Source of the DNA: Symmachiella macrocystis
GTDB lineage: Bacteria; Planctomycetota; Planctomycetia; Planctomycetales; Planctomycetaceae
DNA length: 64,000 bases
Assembly: GCF_007860075.1 (NCBI RefSeq)
Contig: NZ_SJPP01000001.1
Location: 1,634,501-1,698,500, forward strand
Reading direction: 5' to 3'
Below, in pieces: positions 57,698 through 64,000 of the stretch. The translations under genes were made by a program, and so were the position numbers. The notes below the pieces were generated by a model, which was not told the origin of the DNA, searched no databases, and saw nothing but the letters and a program-made list of their open reading frames with translations. How positions within the stretch are numbered: the stretch's first letter is position 1; each line of letters begins with the position of its first letter.

Positions 57698-58321
57698 GTG
57701 GATCAATCAACAGATGCACATCGCGCTTGGGCACGGCTGCGCTCGGGGGACAAAACGGCATTGGCCGAGTTATTTGGCCAATATCGTCCGCAATTGCGGC
57801 GGATGGTCGAATTGCGGATCGCGGGACGGTTGACCAGTCGCGTTGACCCGTCGGACATCCTGCAGGAGACCTTTATGGACGCCAGTCAAAAAATAGACGC
57901 TTACGTCAGCAATCCACGGGTCACCCTGTTTGTCTGGCTGCGAGGTTTAACATTGGATCGACTGCTGAAAGTTCAGCGGCGTCACCTGGGAACGCAATCT
58001 CGTGACATCCTGCGCGAATTGCGCTTGCCAGCGGAATCCTCGTTGGCCTTGGGCCGCCAGTTACTCGCCGGGGGACCGACGCCCAGTGGAATCATGGAGC
58101 AGGGAGAATTACGTAGACAAGTGGGAGCGGCGTTGCAACAATTGAATGACCGTGACCGCGAGGTATTGGTGATGCGACACTTCGAAGGCATGAGCAACCT
58201 GCAAGTCGCTGAAGCGCTTGAGATTGCCGCGACAGCGGCGACCATGCGACACGGTCGTGCGCTCAAACGGCTGAAGGACATTCTCACTGCTCGTCTCCCT
58301 TCCGGGGAATCGTCGTCATGA
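57698..58321 (+). CDS. ECF-type RNA polymerase sigma factor
   Basis: The GTG-started 207-residue protein has sigma region 2 (about 15-90: LFGQYRPQLRRMVELRI, RVDPSDILQETFMDA) and region 4 (about 140-200: LNDRDREVLVMRHFEGMSN, then a helix-turn-helix in LQVAEALEIAATAATMRHGR). No anti-sigma gene adjoins it. Instead its TGA overlaps the ATG of a Ser/Thr kinase gene, as in planctomycete ECF groups thought to be controlled by phosphorylation. It would direct RNA polymerase to an unknown set of promoters. Confidence 0.9.
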   Translation: MDQSTDAHRAWARLRSGDKTALAELFGQYRPQLRRMVELRIAGRLTSRVDPSDILQETFMDASQKIDAYVSNPRVTLFVWLRGLTLDRLLKVQRRHLGTQSRDILRELRLPAESSLALGRQLLAGGPTPSGIMEQGELRRQVGAALQQLNDRDREVLVMRHFEGMSNLQVAEALEIAATAATMRHGRALKRLKDILTARLPSGESSS

Positions 58322-61272
58322 ACGTGAAGTCCCGCTCAAAACCGCATGCCGAAACGCCGCCCGAGGAGAGTTCCGGGGGTGAGTATCTGGTCTACGGTCT
58401 GATCGCCGAGCAGGTGGAACAATTCCTCGACGAAGGCCGCTCAATCGATGTGTCGGGTATCGTGAAACAATATCCGCACCTGGAGCGACAAATCCGCGAC
58501 TTGATTCCGTCGCTAGCGGCGTTGCATCAGATTGGGCCGGCCGAGCAAGATCGCGAAACACGGTCCCTCGGTGGGTTCCGCAACGGCCGCCGCACGATGT
58601 TGGGCGACTTTGCACTGGGCCGCGAAATCGGCCGGGGCGGCATGGGGGTGGTTTATGAAGCAATGCAGGTCTCGCTCGGGCGGCGCGTCGCGCTGAAGGT
58701 GCTGCCATTTGCGGCCGTGCTTGACAAGCGGCAGTTGCAACGTTTCAAAAACGAAGCCCAAGCGGCCGCGGCGCTGCATCACCCACACATTGTGCCGGTC
58801 TTCGCCGTGGGTTGCGAACGCGGCGTGCACTATTACGCAATGCAGTATATCGAGGGCAGGGACCTTTCGGACGCGATCGTGCAATTGCGGCATCTGTGTG
58901 TCGGCGCTGCGGCGGATGCAGATGCGCAAGCCTTGCAGTCCTCATCGGCCGGCGGGTTTGACCGCGGCCGTATGTTTTACCGCACGGTGGCACAGATTGG
59001 GGTCCAGGCCGCTGAAGCATTGGAGTACGCACACCAACGAGGCATTGTGCACCGTGACATCAAGCCCTCCAATTTAATGCTCGACAGTGAGGGCGAGATC
59101 TGGGTTGCCGATTTTGGCTTGGCGCAAATCGAAACCGATGCCACCTTGACCGGCACCGGCGATTTGGTCGGGACGCTGCGGTACATGAGCCCAGAACAAA
59201 TCTCCGACCGGCCGACCGACGTGGATCACCGCTGTGACATTTTCGCCCTCGGAGCCACGTTGTATGAACTGGCGACCCTGCAGCCGTTGTACACATCAGA
59301 AACACGTGCGGAACTGCTGCGCGAACGGACGCGGCATGATCCGGTCAGCCCCCGAACATTGGAACCGTCGATTCCGCAGGATCTGGAAACGATCATTCTT
59401 AAAGCCATCGCCAAACACAAACAGGCCCGGTACGCGACCGCCGAGGATCTGGCGGCCGACCTGCGGCGGTTTTTGAACAACGAACCGATAGCGGCCCGCC
59501 CGCCTAATCTGTTGGCGCGCGTTACGACATGGTCCAAGCGACACCAGAAGTGGGTCGCGGCGGCGGCGATTCTTATTTGCGGCTGCTTGGTGTTCGCGGC
59601 GGGGCGAACGCTCGCGCCCCGCCGCGCACATCAAGCACGCAGCGACAATCAAGCTGTACCAAGGGTTGTGCAAGATGTTCGTCCGCTCGAAATCAAACAG
59701 CCGAAGGTGGCCGAACCAACCAATCAAGAGCCCGCTGAAGTCGCGCAAGACGTTGCATTGCCCACGATGCAGTTGCCGGAATCACTACGGCCGGTGATCA
59801 CTGAGATCGCAGGAGTGATCGCCCGCGTGCAACAACAGTCGAACGTCGAGGAATCGCAAAACCAAGGCCCTTCGGCGGTCGATGTGGCGGCAGATCGTGA
59901 CGTGCAGCCCCCCCCACAACCGATCGCACAGCCATTTGCCGTACCGGATTCGACGCCCCCTCCCCCGCTCGATTTTCGCGTGGAATCCGATCAAGTTGCC
60001 TACGTCGGTTTGGTCAAAAACCTTTTGGAAGAAGGGCTGGGGCAGTCTGGAAAATCGGCTGTGGAAGCGGCTGAACAATATGCCGTCGAAGCCCGTCGAC
60101 TGTGCAACAACGATCCGCGGCTCGATTATGCGTTGGGGCTGGTGAACTTGAAAAACTTTCGCCCGTCCGAGGCTCTAGAACACTTCACCGCTGCCAAGCA
60201 CCGCGCCGATTATCCCTACCTTCCGGCAGAGCAAGCGGAGATTTGGTATTTGCTGTCGCGGAAAGAGTATGAACCGGGTCTGGATCGTCTGGCGCAGTTG
60301 GTGAAGACCCTTTCCGATTCCCCAGCCGCTTGGCCCGACACAGCGACGCGCACAAATACCGCGCACTGGGTGGGACGCGTGGTTGCGTTTTTGCAGGGTC
60401 CGGGAAGCGGACGCAAAGTTGATAAGGCTTTGCAGCGTCCCGGAATGGATTTTCGTGAATCCTTAAGCGCCTCCTATCGACCGGCGTACGACGCAGGGCA
60501 GTTGATGACGCAATTGAATCACCAGCAACTGCAAACCCGCGTGGATGATATCCGCAAGGATACGCAAACAGCCCAACTGGATAAACGAAACGAAAAGCAA
60601 GAAGAACTCGCCGACCGCCGTGAAGAGCTCGCCGGCCAGCAGAATGATATCAAGCGGGATGCAAAGCAATGGAAGGAGTGGTTGGAAGACCAAACTTCAC
60701 AAGCGGATGAAAAACTGAATGAGTTGGAAAAGGAATACATCACGTTGGAGGAACAAGATAAATCGCTGCGACGCTCAATACAGTCGTTGCAATATGAAAT
60801 TCAACTCTACAGGCAATCTGGTCCTGACATCGGATCGGGGAATGCAAGGGAAACAAGTTTTGGTAATGGGGATGTGACCCGCCGTAGACTCTTCACGTTG
60901 CAGGATCAAATGATGCGGTATCATGCCCAGTTGCATGCGGTATGGCGTCAAGCCAGTATTGTCAATCGCAACGCGCAAACGGTTATGAATGAACGTCGCA
61001 CCGCTGAGCGACGCTATGAGAAAGAGACCGGAACATTCCTAGAAAAGAACGTGAAGTTGGAGAAATGGACGAAGCGACTCAAACGGCAGGAGGAGCGTCT
61101 GAAAGCCAATCCTGTTGTGACGAGCGCTGAACTCACCGATGCGGAACGGCGGTTGGGAATCCTGCGGTCTTATGTGGATCTGGACTGGGGCGATCTACAA
61201 CGACAGATTTTGAAAACATATCAGGCAGCCGGATCGAACGTTGATTCTCCTGCTCAAACGGATGCCGATTAA
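58318..61272 (+). CDS. Membrane Ser/Thr protein kinase with TPR-like and coiled-coil region
   Basis: The 984-residue protein has a Hanks-type kinase domain (about 97-390): G-loop GRGGMG, K127 in VALKV, catalytic HRDIKPSN with D247, DFG at 265-267, and GTLRYMSPEQ. A single membrane helix lies at about 411-428, so the kinase is cytoplasmic. The long outer part contains a proline-rich stretch, a TPR-like segment (about 560-680; LCNNDPRLDYALGLVNL), and a charged coiled coil (about 740-940). The outer part probably senses or binds a partner. It is coupled to the sigma factor by a four-base overlap and followed by Hint-domain genes. Confidence 0.9.
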   Translation: MNVKSRSKPHAETPPEESSGGEYLVYGLIAEQVEQFLDEGRSIDVSGIVKQYPHLERQIRDLIPSLAALHQIGPAEQDRETRSLGGFRNGRRTMLGDFALGREIGRGGMGVVYEAMQVSLGRRVALKVLPFAAVLDKRQLQRFKNEAQAAAALHHPHIVPVFAVGCERGVHYYAMQYIEGRDLSDAIVQLRHLCVGAAADADAQALQSSSAGGFDRGRMFYRTVAQIGVQAAEALEYAHQRGIVHRDIKPSNLMLDSEGEIWVADFGLAQIETDATLTGTGDLVGTLRYMSPEQISDRPTDVDHRCDIFALGATLYELATLQPLYTSETRAELLRERTRHDPVSPRTLEPSIPQDLETIILKAIAKHKQARYATAEDLAADLRRFLNNEPIAARPPNLLARVTTWSKRHQKWVAAAAILICGCLVFAAGRTLAPRRAHQARSDNQAVPRVVQDVRPLEIKQPKVAEPTNQEPAEVAQDVALPTMQLPESLRPVITEIAGVIARVQQQSNVEESQNQGPSAVDVAADRDVQPPPQPIAQPFAVPDSTPPPPLDFRVESDQVAYVGLVKNLLEEGLGQSGKSAVEAAEQYAVEARRLCNNDPRLDYALGLVNLKNFRPSEALEHFTAAKHRADYPYLPAEQAEIWYLLSRKEYEPGLDRLAQLVKTLSDSPAAWPDTATRTNTAHWVGRVVAFLQGPGSGRKVDKALQRPGMDFRESLSASYRPAYDAGQLMTQLNHQQLQTRVDDIRKDTQTAQLDKRNEKQEELADRREELAGQQNDIKRDAKQWKEWLEDQTSQADEKLNELEKEYITLEEQDKSLRRSIQSLQYEIQLYRQSGPDIGSGNARETSFGNGDVTRRRLFTLQDQMMRYHAQLHAVWRQASIVNRNAQTVMNERRTAERRYEKETGTFLEKNVKLEKWTKRLKRQEERLKANPVVTSAELTDAERRLGILRSYVDLDWGDLQRQILKTYQAAGSNVDSPAQTDAD

Positions 61273-61306
61273 TCGCGAGGTTGCGCTTGGAAAGGCGGGT
61301 GATGTC

Positions 61307-63061
61307 ATGAAACGCTCGATGTCTATTGCTATCTTTCTCTCGATTGTCGGGATGTGGAGTCCGGGAACGTTCGCCGGACAACCGCTGACGCGCCGCGCTG
61401 CTCAAGAAGAACTATCGCAGGTTCTGCAATCCGAAGCCGACGGGATCATCACGAATCGGGCTGCGCGACTGAAAGACGCTTTAATCGATTCGAAATGGGA
61501 TGATCTGGCGCACTGGCAAGCCGGCGAGGTACGTTGCGGGAAAGACTGGATGGCCTACGACCAGTTGTTGTTGTTGGAGACCAGCCCGGCGCTGCGCAAA
61601 GAATATCGCCAGCGGCGCCAGAAAACTCCAGAGACACTAGAAGGGCAACTTCAGCTCGCCAACTGGTGTCGGACTCACAAACTGCCTGATCAAGAACGTG
61701 TGCATCTTCTGAAAGCGTTAAAATTTCGGCCGATGTCGTCCGAGATACGCACACGGCTCGGTCATCAATTTGTGGGAGGCACGTGGCTTAGCCCGCAAGA
61801 GCAGCAACGACTCGACGAAGAAAAGGGAATGCGCGCCGCCGCACTCAAGAAATGGGCGCCGCGCCTCACCAAACTGCGTGACGATTTGCATTCCGGTTCC
61901 CAGCGGCGTCAGCGTCTCGCCACGCGGCAGTTGGCTGCCATCACGGATGCGGCGGCCGTTTATGCGATGGAACAGTTGTTCCTCCGCGGCGTCGAGAGGG
62001 AGGAATTGGCTGCTGTACGGGCTTTGAGAGAAATAACGGCGTATCAAGCGGCACACGCGCTGGTGGATGTTGCGGTTGAGTCGAACAATAGCCTGGTCCG
62101 AAACGCAGCTATTGAAGAACTCAAAGCGAAACCACATAAACACTCGGTCCCGGAGTTATTGGCACGATTATCCGATTCGACGGAGACAGCTTTCGTAACC
62201 CGCTTTCACCATTCTGGCGCGTTCATTCGTCAGGTGTACTATCGAGAGCGGCAGTATCGACGTCAAGCAGCCATTGTGGAAACGACGCTTCAGGGTGGTA
62301 GACCAGGGACGGGTCGTCGAGGGGGCGCATTCTACGCCACAGGTACCAAGCGTTTCGTAGAAGATCTTGCTCGGCAACAGGCTGAGCTTGCCCGCCAACT
62401 CAACAAACAGTCCGAGAACAGTAATGCTCGAATCTACACAGTGCTTGCAGCGATTTCCGACGCCGAGGTGTCCAATACTCCCGAAAAATGGTGGAGTTGG
62501 TGGAACCTCGAGCAGGACATCGGAGTCTCTGAAAAGCAGTACGAATACTACTACGAGCATTCGCATGAACGACTTGTCCAACTGCCTACGATCTCGTGTT
62601 TTCGTGCGGGAACGCCTGTCTGGACGGACGAGGGGTTTGTAGCGATTGAGAAAATCCGCGCCGGCGACCGGGTGTTATCCAAAGATATTGAGACCGGGGA
62701 ACTGATGTACAAACCTGTTCTCCAACCGACCCAGCGGACCGAACAAGAGCTCAAAACGATCATGCTGTCGGGTGGCGAAACCTTGGACTGCACGATCGGC
62801 CATCTATTTTGGCGATCCGGGATGGGCTGGATGATGGCCAAGGATTTGAAGCAGGGGGACTTGTTGCATTCCGTGACCGGAGCACAGGCAGTCGATGGCA
62901 TGACCAACGGTCCGATTGCAAAGGTCTACAACCTCATCGTGGCGGACTTCAATACCTATTTCGTCGGTCGTGACATGGTACTCAGCCACGACAACACCGT
63001 CCGCAAACCTACAAACGCTGTCGTTCCGGGATTGATACGAAAAGAACTGAGAGCACGTTAG
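61307..63061 (+). CDS. Secreted HEAT-like protein ending in a Hint (intein/hedgehog-type) domain
   Basis: The start at 61307 gives a signal peptide (MKRSMSIAIFLSIVGMW, cut near TFAGQP). The 584-residue protein has a helical N-terminal region (about 25-420) with WCRTHKL and AYQAAHALVDVAVESNN stretches resembling TPR/HEAT units. The Hint domain begins at C431 (SCFRAGTPVWTDEGF) and continues with block B T-x-x-H (TIGH, 496-499). It ends with YNLIVADFNTYFVG and H561-D-N563, followed by only 21 residues. Such domains cleave or splice the chain around Cys and Asn. No toxin or other cargo follows it. It is 34 bases after the kinase gene. Confidence 0.8.
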   Translation: MKRSMSIAIFLSIVGMWSPGTFAGQPLTRRAAQEELSQVLQSEADGIITNRAARLKDALIDSKWDDLAHWQAGEVRCGKDWMAYDQLLLLETSPALRKEYRQRRQKTPETLEGQLQLANWCRTHKLPDQERVHLLKALKFRPMSSEIRTRLGHQFVGGTWLSPQEQQRLDEEKGMRAAALKKWAPRLTKLRDDLHSGSQRRQRLATRQLAAITDAAAVYAMEQLFLRGVEREELAAVRALREITAYQAAHALVDVAVESNNSLVRNAAIEELKAKPHKHSVPELLARLSDSTETAFVTRFHHSGAFIRQVYYRERQYRRQAAIVETTLQGGRPGTGRRGGAFYATGTKRFVEDLARQQAELARQLNKQSENSNARIYTVLAAISDAEVSNTPEKWWSWWNLEQDIGVSEKQYEYYYEHSHERLVQLPTISCFRAGTPVWTDEGFVAIEKIRAGDRVLSKDIETGELMYKPVLQPTQRTEQELKTIMLSGGETLDCTIGHLFWRSGMGWMMAKDLKQGDLLHSVTGAQAVDGMTNGPIAKVYNLIVADFNTYFVGRDMVLSHDNTVRKPTNAVVPGLIRKELRAR

Positions 63062-63214
63062 TCGCCGCGCTGCCGGCTTTGCCTCAAGTCCTTTAAGCAA
63101 TGCGAAACTGCAAACAAATGGACGAAGCCAATGCTGTGGAATAACTGGTCACGATCTTAAGGTCATACGTGGACATCGACTGGACAAGCGAAAACGCCGG
63201 GAAAGGTGAATACC

Positions 63215-64000
63215 ATGCTGAAGTGCTCAACGCAGATCATAGTCATTGTGGTCATTGCAGGATTATCCAGTACAGCTGTCGTGGTTGCTGAGCGTCCGGT
63301 CTCGCGCGATTCGCGGGAGACGCTGGCACAGGTGCTCCGCTTGGAAGTCGATGGAGGCGTGGCGAATCGAGCCGAGTTACTCCAAGGTGTGTTGGGCAGT
63401 TCCAAACGGGATGCGCCGGCGCATTGGCAGTCGGGACAGGTAAGAACCCACGCCGGCTGGGTCGCGTACGATCAGCAGCCCACCTCTGACAAACTTTTAG
63501 CACTGCGCAGTGAATATCGCCAGCGCCGCAGTGATGCAGCAGAGTCGTTTGCCGAACGTCTCAAGCTGGCCGATTGGTGCCGGACACACCGACTTTGGGA
63601 TCAGGAGCGGGCTCACCTCGTGGAAGCGTTGGAAATTCAACCGACATCCGAGGCAGTCCGCAGACGGCTTGGCTATCGAATGATCGGCGGAATATGGCTC
63701 AGCCCTCAACAGCTAGAAATGCTTAAAGAGGAACAGCAAACCCGCGCCGTTGCCCTGAATCGTTGGCAGCCACGCATTCTGAAGATTCGCACCGGTTTGA
63801 GTTCTCGATCTGAACGCCGACGCCAAAAAGCAGAAACAGAACTGGCAGCGATTACCGATCCAGAGGCGGTGTATGCGATGGAGCAAATGTTCTTCCGCGG
63901 CCAAGAGCCCGAAGAATTGGCAGCCACGCGTACGTTTGGAAAAATGACTGTGTATCAAGCCGCCCATGCCCTTGTCGACGTCGCCATCGCAGCCAATAAC
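63215..64000 (+). CDS. Tandem paralogue of the Hint-domain protein, N-terminal part (runs off window)
   Basis: The ATG at 63215 is preceded by AAAGGTGA. The frame stays open for 262 codons to the window end, so the C-terminus, including any Hint domain, is not visible. A signal peptide (cut near VVVAERP) is followed by a region clearly homologous to the preceding protein: shared stretches include LRSEYRQRR, WCRTH, GGIWLSPQQ, AVYAMEQMFFRG and YQAAHALVDVA. The two genes arose by duplication and have since diverged. The gap of 153 bases contains no gene. Confidence 0.85.
   Translation, partial: MLKCSTQIIVIVVIAGLSSTAVVVAERPVSRDSRETLAQVLRLEVDGGVANRAELLQGVLGSSKRDAPAHWQSGQVRTHAGWVAYDQQPTSDKLLALRSEYRQRRSDAAESFAERLKLADWCRTHRLWDQERAHLVEALEIQPTSEAVRRRLGYRMIGGIWLSPQQLEMLKEEQQTRAVALNRWQPRILKIRTGLSSRSERRRQKAETELAAITDPEAVYAMEQMFFRGQEPEELAATRTFGKMTVYQAAHALVDVAIAANN

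What the first reader, a model, noticed from the sequence alone, without database searches (positions are those of the whole stretch)
57698..64000. ECF sigma factor, membrane kinase and tandem Hint-domain proteins as one unit
Four same-direction genes link a sigma factor (four-base overlap with the kinase), a transmembrane Ser/Thr kinase with a large extracytoplasmic TPR-like/coiled-coil part, a secreted helical protein ending in a Hint domain, and a paralogue of that protein. ECF-kinase coupling in planctomycetes is known; linking it to self-processing secreted proteins is not something I know to be described. A model is that the kinase's outer part senses the Hint protein or its cleavage product and the sigma factor responds.
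Basis: partly seen in the sequence, partly recalled or inferred. Interest (0 to 1): 0.75.

Follow-up and report, generated by a model that had tools for sequence, protein, structure and literature searches.

The report
Sigma-kinase operon with Hint proteins
In one planctomycete genus, an apparently old pair of exported proteins, one carrying a self-processing (Hint) domain, has been joined to a membrane kinase and a sigma factor, so that a possible outside signal and its gene switch sit in one operon.

Summary
The four genes are there: an ECF sigma factor, a membrane Ser/Thr kinase (4-nt overlap) and two tandem exported Hint-domain proteins; the second runs past the window and is complete. Sigma plus this kinase beside Hint genes was found only in one genus (3 of 3 held genomes). 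The kinase's extracytoplasmic TPR/coiled-coil module ("K") is, in other genera, a free exported protein encoded beside Hint homologues. Of 78 distinct homologues over 450 aa, 27 have K nearby, 31 do not, 20 are cut by contig ends. K and Hint co-occur over 170 genomes (both 35, Hint only 4, K only 9, neither 122), though K also stands without Hint (0 of 20 further K loci). So K-Hint is probably the older unit, the kinase fusion a genus addition. The Hint domain keeps N-terminal cleavage residues (Cys, Thr/Ser, His, F-block acid, 46 of 46) but has Asp for the splicing Asn (46 of 46) and a short tail, not a toxin. It looks like an N-terminal self-cleaver. That the kinase senses the Hint protein and drives the sigma factor is inferred; cleavage, binding and phosphorylation are untested.

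The parts
57698..58321 (+). ECF-type sigma factor, 207 aa, planctomycete group near TIGR02984; DAED-like motif reads DPSD
58318..58321 (+). 4-nt overlap of sigma stop and kinase start
58318..61272 (+). membrane Ser/Thr kinase fused to the K module, 984 aa
58615..59442 (+). protein kinase domain (Pfam match at residues 100-375); HRD and DFG motifs present by eye
59545..59613 (+). single transmembrane segment (about residues 410-432, by eye)
   Evidence: no predictor run
59929..61239 (+). K module: TPR array plus long antiparallel coiled-coil hairpin; a free exported-looking protein in other genera
61307..63061 (+). Hint1: exported (signal-peptide-like start, by eye) HEAT-like protein with C-terminal Hint domain, 584 aa
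62597..62599 (+). Cys431 codon, presumed first residue of the Hint domain and nucleophile (46 of 46 aligned homologues)
62591..62995 (+). Hint domain (about residues 429-563), Asp562 in place of the terminal Asn
62996..63058 (+). short conserved C-terminal tail (PTNAVVPGL type), no toxin domain
63206..64000 (+). Hint2, paralogue of Hint1 (56% identical); continues beyond the window to window-equivalent 64969 with a Hint domain and the same kind of tail

Best explanation
The locus is a genus-specific signalling version of an older exported pair. Shown by sequence: the Hint proteins belong to a planctomycete family of exported-looking HEAT-like proteins whose Hint domain keeps the N-terminal cleavage residues, has Asp for the splicing Asn and carries a short conserved tail instead of a toxin; in many genera such a protein is encoded beside a free TPR/coiled-coil protein K; in this genus K is the outer part of a membrane kinase whose gene overlaps an ECF sigma gene. 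Inferred: after export the Hint domain forms a thioester at Ser430-Cys431 and cleaves there, freeing the HEAT-like part or passing it to a nucleophile; K binds the Hint protein or a product; binding changes the kinase's activity; the kinase acts on the sigma factor, which drives transcription, probably including this operon.
For: K in 25 of 41 examined Hint loci, same strand in 25 of 25, in several gene orders. Co-occurrence 35/4/9/122 over 170 genomes, Fisher 1.7e-23; by genus 16/2/3/37, 1.6e-9 (sets typed). K and Hint distances at 25 loci correlate, r 0.90, 0 of 5000 permutations as high. The genus's K falls with the Hint-linked Ks on the K tree. Hint fold: best solved match the BIL domain 2lwy, E 3.7e-11, TM 0.90 by target length. 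Cys431, Thr/Ser496, His499, Asp562 each 46 of 46; F-block position 547 Asp in 43, Glu in 3. K-like modules also occur in other kinases (6 of 8 long-frame loci hold both matches), so use as a kinase input part seems to have arisen more than once (4 changes on the tree, with long branches). dN/dS below 0.17 for all four genes.
Against: Sigma plus K-kinase was found at no homologous locus outside the genus, so the link to transcription is recent. 31 of 78 homologues have at least 2.5 kb held on both sides and no K nearby; 20 of 29 named genomes whose Hint locus showed no K have no K match at E 1e-10 anywhere. Of 20 further K loci picked for having no known Hint match, none had a Hint-family gene in the stretch fetched, and 26 of the 66 genomes with K in the class sample lie outside the family: K has other roles. 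Co-divergence may reflect only shared species history; no control with non-adjacent paralogues was run. The Ser in the DPSD motif also occurs in sigma factors of this genome with no kinase in the fetched flank (L206, L209). His561 is kept in only 38 of 46. No binding, cleavage or phosphorylation was tested.
Confidence: 0.5

Rival explanations
1. The Hint proteins are an output of the sigma factor, not the signal: the kinase senses something else at the envelope through K, and the operon simply makes the exported proteins when needed.
For: Operon layout alone fits this; K-Hint pairs stand elsewhere without kinase or sigma; K occurs away from Hint genes and K-like modules are parts of other kinases.
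Against: The kinase's outer part is homologous to the Hint protein's own frequent neighbour, which suggests contact with it rather than with an unrelated cue.
Confidence: 0.22
2. K, Hint protein and X form an envelope assembly; the Hint domain ties the HEAT-like part covalently to another component, and the kinase fusion reports on that assembly's state.
For: All have exported-looking starts (by eye); K is TPR plus coiled coil; X is HEAT-like plus vWA; gene orders vary while the set stays together. Acyl-transfer residues are kept.
Against: X was not found in the three genus genomes (E 1e-30); no acceptor was sought or found.
Confidence: 0.2
3. The Hint proteins are pretoxins of the polymorphic-toxin kind.
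For: Same Pfam domain, PT-HINT; other PF07591 proteins of the family look like true pretoxins.
Against: Only about 20 residues follow the Hint domain, ending in [VI]PGL plus a few residues in 13 of 13 HN-type ORFs and in none of 22 other ORFs there (3 of these cut at the 3' end). Of 18 such other ORFs, 9 had an end that my pattern could read, all 9 with His-Asn and about 85-145 residues after it.
Confidence: 0.03
4. The neighbourhood is chance: planctomycetes have many sigma factors and kinases.
For: 62 Pkinase match places and 15 matches to the sigma family in this genome; a sigma-kinase pair also lies two genes upstream of a Hint gene in L193, with a kinase that has no K match.
Against: Order kept in 3 of 3 genus genomes, sigma and kinase overlap, and the kinase's outer part is homologous to the Hint protein's frequent neighbour.
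Confidence: 0.03

Closest known systems
ECF sigma factors regulated by Ser/Thr kinases (EcfP-type; ECF43, ECF59, ECF60)
   Same: sigma factor of regions 2 and 4 encoded with a Ser/Thr kinase; a Ser stands in the motif that is DAED in other ECFs
   Different: near another sigma group (TIGR02984); the motif keeps two acids (DPSD); Hint proteins are not mentioned in the passages of PMC8103513 that I saw
Bacterial intein-like (BIL) domains, e.g. Clostridium thermocellum 2LWY
   Same: fold (TM 0.90, 38% identity) and N-terminal active-site residues
   Different: Asp instead of the terminal Asn, no conserved nucleophile after it, short conserved tail
PT-HINT pretoxins of polymorphic toxin systems (PMC3482391, passages seen)
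   Same: Pfam family PF07591, C-terminal region of an exported protein
   Different: no toxin domain after Hint, no His-Asn end, frequent partner gene K
Hedgehog proteins
   Same: exported N-terminal part, C-terminal Hint fold with a first Cys; solved Hedgehog domains 6tyy and 1at0 are among the fold matches
   Different: about 12-30 residues follow the Hint domain, so no room for a sterol-recognition region (its length is recalled); different N-terminal part; chemistry not tested
Planctomycete membrane kinases with periplasmic TPR arrays (PMC11032199, passages seen)
   Same: cytoplasmic kinase, one membrane span, outer TPR part
   Different: this TPR part continues into a long coiled-coil hairpin and exists as a free protein beside Hint genes

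Membership tests
ECF sigma factor | sigma-70 regions 2 and 4, matches to ECF models | tested here: met
   Sigma70_r4_2 41.7 over 25.7; Sigma70_ECF 26.8 over 21.1; Sigma70_r2 22.7, under its cut-off of 24; TIGR02937 64.3 over 42.9; TIGR02984 177.5 under 183.75
Kinase-regulated ECF (EcfP-type) | adjacent Ser/Thr kinase gene | tested here: met
   4-nt overlap; 3 of 3 genus genomes
Kinase-regulated ECF (EcfP-type) | acidic DAED motif replaced, with a phosphorylatable Ser/Thr | tested here: inconclusive
   DPSD in all three genus sigmas, but DASD/DESD in other sigma factors of the genome, of which L206 and L209 show no kinase in the fetched flank
Kinase-regulated ECF (EcfP-type) | phosphorylation switches the sigma factor | not testable with these tools
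   needs biochemistry
PT-HINT pretoxin | PF07591 Hint domain | tested here: met
   83.1-91 bits over cut-off 27.7
PT-HINT pretoxin | C-terminal toxin domain after the Hint domain | tested here: not met
   only a short tail in all 46, with Pro-Gly in 45 of 46; 13 of 13
PT-HINT pretoxin / intein | terminal Asn of the Hint domain | tested here: not met
   Asp in 46 of 46; one search aligns it with an Asn of 8w20
Hint superfamily (BIL, Hog, intein) | Hint fold with N-terminal Cys and block-B Thr/Ser-x-x-His | tested here: met
Hedgehog-type Hog domain | sterol-recognition region after the Hint domain | tested here: not met
   about 12-30 residues follow; the region's length in Hedgehog is recalled
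Hint superfamily | self-cleavage | not testable with these tools
   needs expressed protein

The most novel reading that the evidence does not exclude
A bacterial parallel to Hedgehog signalling: an exported precursor whose Hint domain, unable to splice, passes its N-terminal HEAT-like part from the Cys431 thioester to an outside nucleophile, and a receptor kinase whose outer part evolved from the precursor's free partner K reads that event and switches an ECF sigma factor encoded in the same operon.
Probability: 0.12. Interest if true: 0.88.

Novelty: new variant of a known kind. Interest (0 to 1): 0.62.

Why it matters
To my knowledge the signals of most planctomycete ECF-kinase pairs are unknown. 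Here the outer part of such a kinase can be traced to a free protein with a recurrent gene partner, which names a candidate ligand and makes the question testable by a binding assay. It also separates, within PF07591, a non-toxin group of Hint proteins that seems built for N-terminal cleavage only, and points to two exported-looking partner families, of which K has no curated Pfam domain over its cut-off.

Tried and rejected
Polymorphic toxin reading: rejected on the missing toxin and missing His-Asn end. General sigma-kinase-Hint unit across planctomycetes: rejected. A second sigma-kinase at L193: the kinase has a TPR-like outer part (by eye) without a K match, and two large other genes lie between. 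A sigma gene 322 nt upstream of the Hint gene at L140 with a divergent kinase, and a similar divergent kinase at L142: these kinases have several membrane segments by eye and no K match; the two loci are sisters on the tree, so at most one event; not used. Promoter and terminator scans: promoter-like 5 found, 3.6 expected; terminator-like 15 found, 9.8 expected (sd 3.1); nothing used. Fold search of K gave only weak matches, mostly TPR proteins, none at E 0.001 or better. The Ser in the sigma motif as proof of kinase control: not specific. Literature: ten searches showed no title, abstract start or passage that links Hint proteins with a kinase-sigma pair; I saw listings and passages only, and the library holds open-licence papers only. 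Searches returned none.

Selection and dropped rows. The 40 loci were picked by hand from about 50 full-length or two-piece matches; those at contig ends were mostly left out. The 78 proteins come from those loci and the named loci: Hint-bearing ORFs of 450 aa or less, or without the HEAT-like part, were dropped (among them L188 and L189, which do have K beside the Hint piece), then 104 were reduced to 78 by identical C-termini. K was counted on the same strand within 4.5 kb. The 29 genomes were picked as having no K at the fetched Hint locus; 10 of them are among those cut by contig ends. The 20 K loci were picked because no Hint match was known there.

Full report
What is there. The window holds, on one strand, a sigma gene (57698-58321), a kinase gene overlapping it by four bases (58318-61272), a Hint-protein gene (61307-63061) and the start of a second one (63206 on). 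The whole genome shows the second to be 587 aa with its own Hint domain; these two are the only PF07591 matches found in the genome. The next long ORFs on both sides lie on the other strand. Pfam and NCBIfam support the sigma factor (near the planctomycete group TIGR02984, 177.5 bits, under its cut-off of 183.75), the kinase and the Hint domain; the kinase's outer part has no curated domain over its cut-off. Against one genus-mate dN/dS is about 0.05, 0.16, 0.16 and 0.11 for the four genes (computed), so all look constrained.

Relatives of the Hint protein. In 170 genomes of the family, 88 have some match to Hint1 at E 1e-5, and by my reading of that table 39 have one below about 1e-20 (set typed). 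I fetched 40 loci, picked from about 50 candidates, and compared them with the home locus. The outer part of the kinase has a homologue near the Hint gene in 25 of 41 loci, on the same strand in 25 of 25. In three of these, all in the window's genus, it is fused to the kinase and preceded by the sigma factor. In the other 22 it is a free protein of about 440-560 aa, with a signal-peptide-like start in those I read (by eye). I call it K. In 12 of the 41 loci a third exported-looking protein, X, stands with them; the two that I scanned have a vWA domain over cut-off and HEAT-like repeats under cut-off. The orders are X-K-H (5), X-H-K (4), K-X-H (2), K-H-X (1), K-H (9), H-K (1) and fused (3). Such reshuffling with the set kept together argues for joint function. 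X was not found in the three genus genomes.

Wider sample. A scan of named genomes gave 73 loci, nearly all with planctomycete titles (exceptions: a Lysobacterales MAG and a distant Amycolatopsis match). Pooled, with ORFs of 450 aa or less dropped and duplicates removed, there are 78 distinct homologues: 27 with K within 4.5 kb on the same strand, 31 without K although at least 2.5 kb is held on both sides, and 20 cut by contig ends. Sigma plus K-kinase was seen only in the genus; its named member is Planctomycetales bacterium IP29b_bin.173 (L133). Looser cases are L193 (another sigma-kinase pair, two genes upstream, no K) and L140 (sigma gene upstream, divergent kinase). On the tree of these proteins K-adjacency needs at least 6 changes, and the genus is sister to a clade that holds most of the proteins with free K (SH-aLRT 91, quick tree); the duplication into Hint1 and Hint2 is older than the split of two of the genus genomes. 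Of 29 named genomes whose fetched Hint locus showed no K (10 of them near contig ends), 20 have no K match at E 1e-10 and 9 have one. So K is not obligatory for the Hint protein.

K apart from Hint. Of 20 further K loci, picked because no Hint match was known there, none had a Hint-family gene in the stretch fetched and 2 had X. In a class sample K is found in 66 of 397 genomes, 26 of them outside the family. So K has uses without Hint.

Co-occurrence. Over 170 genomes: both 35, Hint only 4, K only 9, neither 122 (Fisher 1.7e-23); by genus 16, 2, 3, 37 (1.6e-9). K and Hint distances at 25 loci correlate with r 0.90, 0 of 5000 permutations as high. Shared ancestry contributes to both figures, and I ran no control for it. 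Among K matches of E below 1e-50 in the family, open frames of about 1000 aa are seen only in the three genus genomes; the others are 324-557 aa. Of eight loci with weaker K-like matches in long frames that I fetched, six hold both a kinase and a K-like match (L246, L247, L250-L253), one a kinase match only (L248) and one a K match only (L249); L251 also has a caspase-like domain. On the K tree (59 rows) fusion to kinases needs 4 changes, and the genus's K falls with the Hint-linked ones (support 82); several branches are long.

The Hint domain. The model of Hint1 is good (mean pLDDT 88.1, pTM 0.83) and its best solved match is the bacterial intein-like domain 2lwy (E 3.7e-11, TM 0.90). In 46 aligned proteins the Cys, the block-B Thr/Ser and His and the final Asp are present in 46 of 46; the F-block acid is Asp in 43 and Glu in 3; the His before the final Asp is kept in 38; the position after it is Asn in 21 and Val in 19. 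Inteins end in His-Asn, and the Asn does the C-terminal cleavage (PMC7765530, passages). Here it is Asp throughout. Of 18 other PF07591 ORFs of the family, 9 had an end my pattern could read; all 9 have His-Asn followed by about 85-145 residues. This family ends in a short tail with Pro-Gly in 45 of 46, and [VI]PGL in 13 of 13 ORFs against 0 of 22 others. I conclude that the domain is built for the first step, cleavage or acyl transfer at its first Cys, and not for splicing or toxin release. That is inference from residues; release of the tail through the Asp is not excluded.

The kinase and sigma factor. The K ectodomain model is a TPR array followed by a long antiparallel coiled-coil hairpin (mean pLDDT 86.9, pTM 0.63). 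No solved structure matches it strongly. In some kinase-regulated ECF factors the DAED motif is replaced and a Ser or Thr is phosphorylated (PMC8103513, passages). The sigma here has DPSD, as do its two genus orthologues, but DASD or DESD also occurs in other sigma factors of the genome, so this is only compatible with kinase control. The genome has 15 matches to the sigma family and 62 match places of the kinase family.

Mechanism and standing. Most likely the Hint proteins are exported, processed at Cys431, and contacted by K, which in this genus reports through the kinase to the sigma factor. The recurrent K-Hint pair and the fusion are shown by sequence; contact, processing and signalling are inferred. 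Main rivals are that the Hint proteins are only products of the sigma factor, and that K, Hint and X form an envelope assembly. ECF-kinase pairs, TPR kinases and Hint domains are known; their combination with K was not seen in ten literature searches of an open-licence library, of which I saw listings and passages. I therefore rate it a new variant of a known kind.

Noticed in passing
L251:3093-6455, also L252 and L253: Kinases of about 1120 aa combine a kinase domain with a K-like TPR module; Pfam shows a caspase-like (Peptidase_C14) domain between them in L251, whose catalytic Cys region looks altered by eye. They come from genomes that carry a Hint homologue without K at the fetched locus.
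   Followed up: partly
L140:4436-9713 and L142:374-5561: Two sister MAG loci have a multi-span kinase divergent from the Hint gene; in L140 a sigma gene lies 322 nt upstream of the Hint gene. Possibly an independent sigma/kinase link.
   Followed up: partly
L231:2254-5515 and L232:5149-8395: X and K stand together without a Hint-family gene in the fetched stretch in two genomes (G163, G166), so X-K can exist apart from Hint.
   Followed up: no
G032: One genome of the family has 20 PF07591 matches, presumably a large set of pretoxins.
   Followed up: no
L194:400-2275: In one Schlesneria MAG the HEAT-like part and the Hint domain are two overlapping ORFs (460 and 167 aa); real split or sequencing error not decided.
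   Followed up: no
X proteins beside Hint genes, e.g. L066:7577-8893: A paper on Hint families (PMC2362128, passages) describes eukaryotic proteins that fuse a VWA domain to a Hint-like domain (Vint); here a vWA protein and a Hint protein are neighbours in bacteria. Whether this is more than coincidence was not examined.
   Followed up: no
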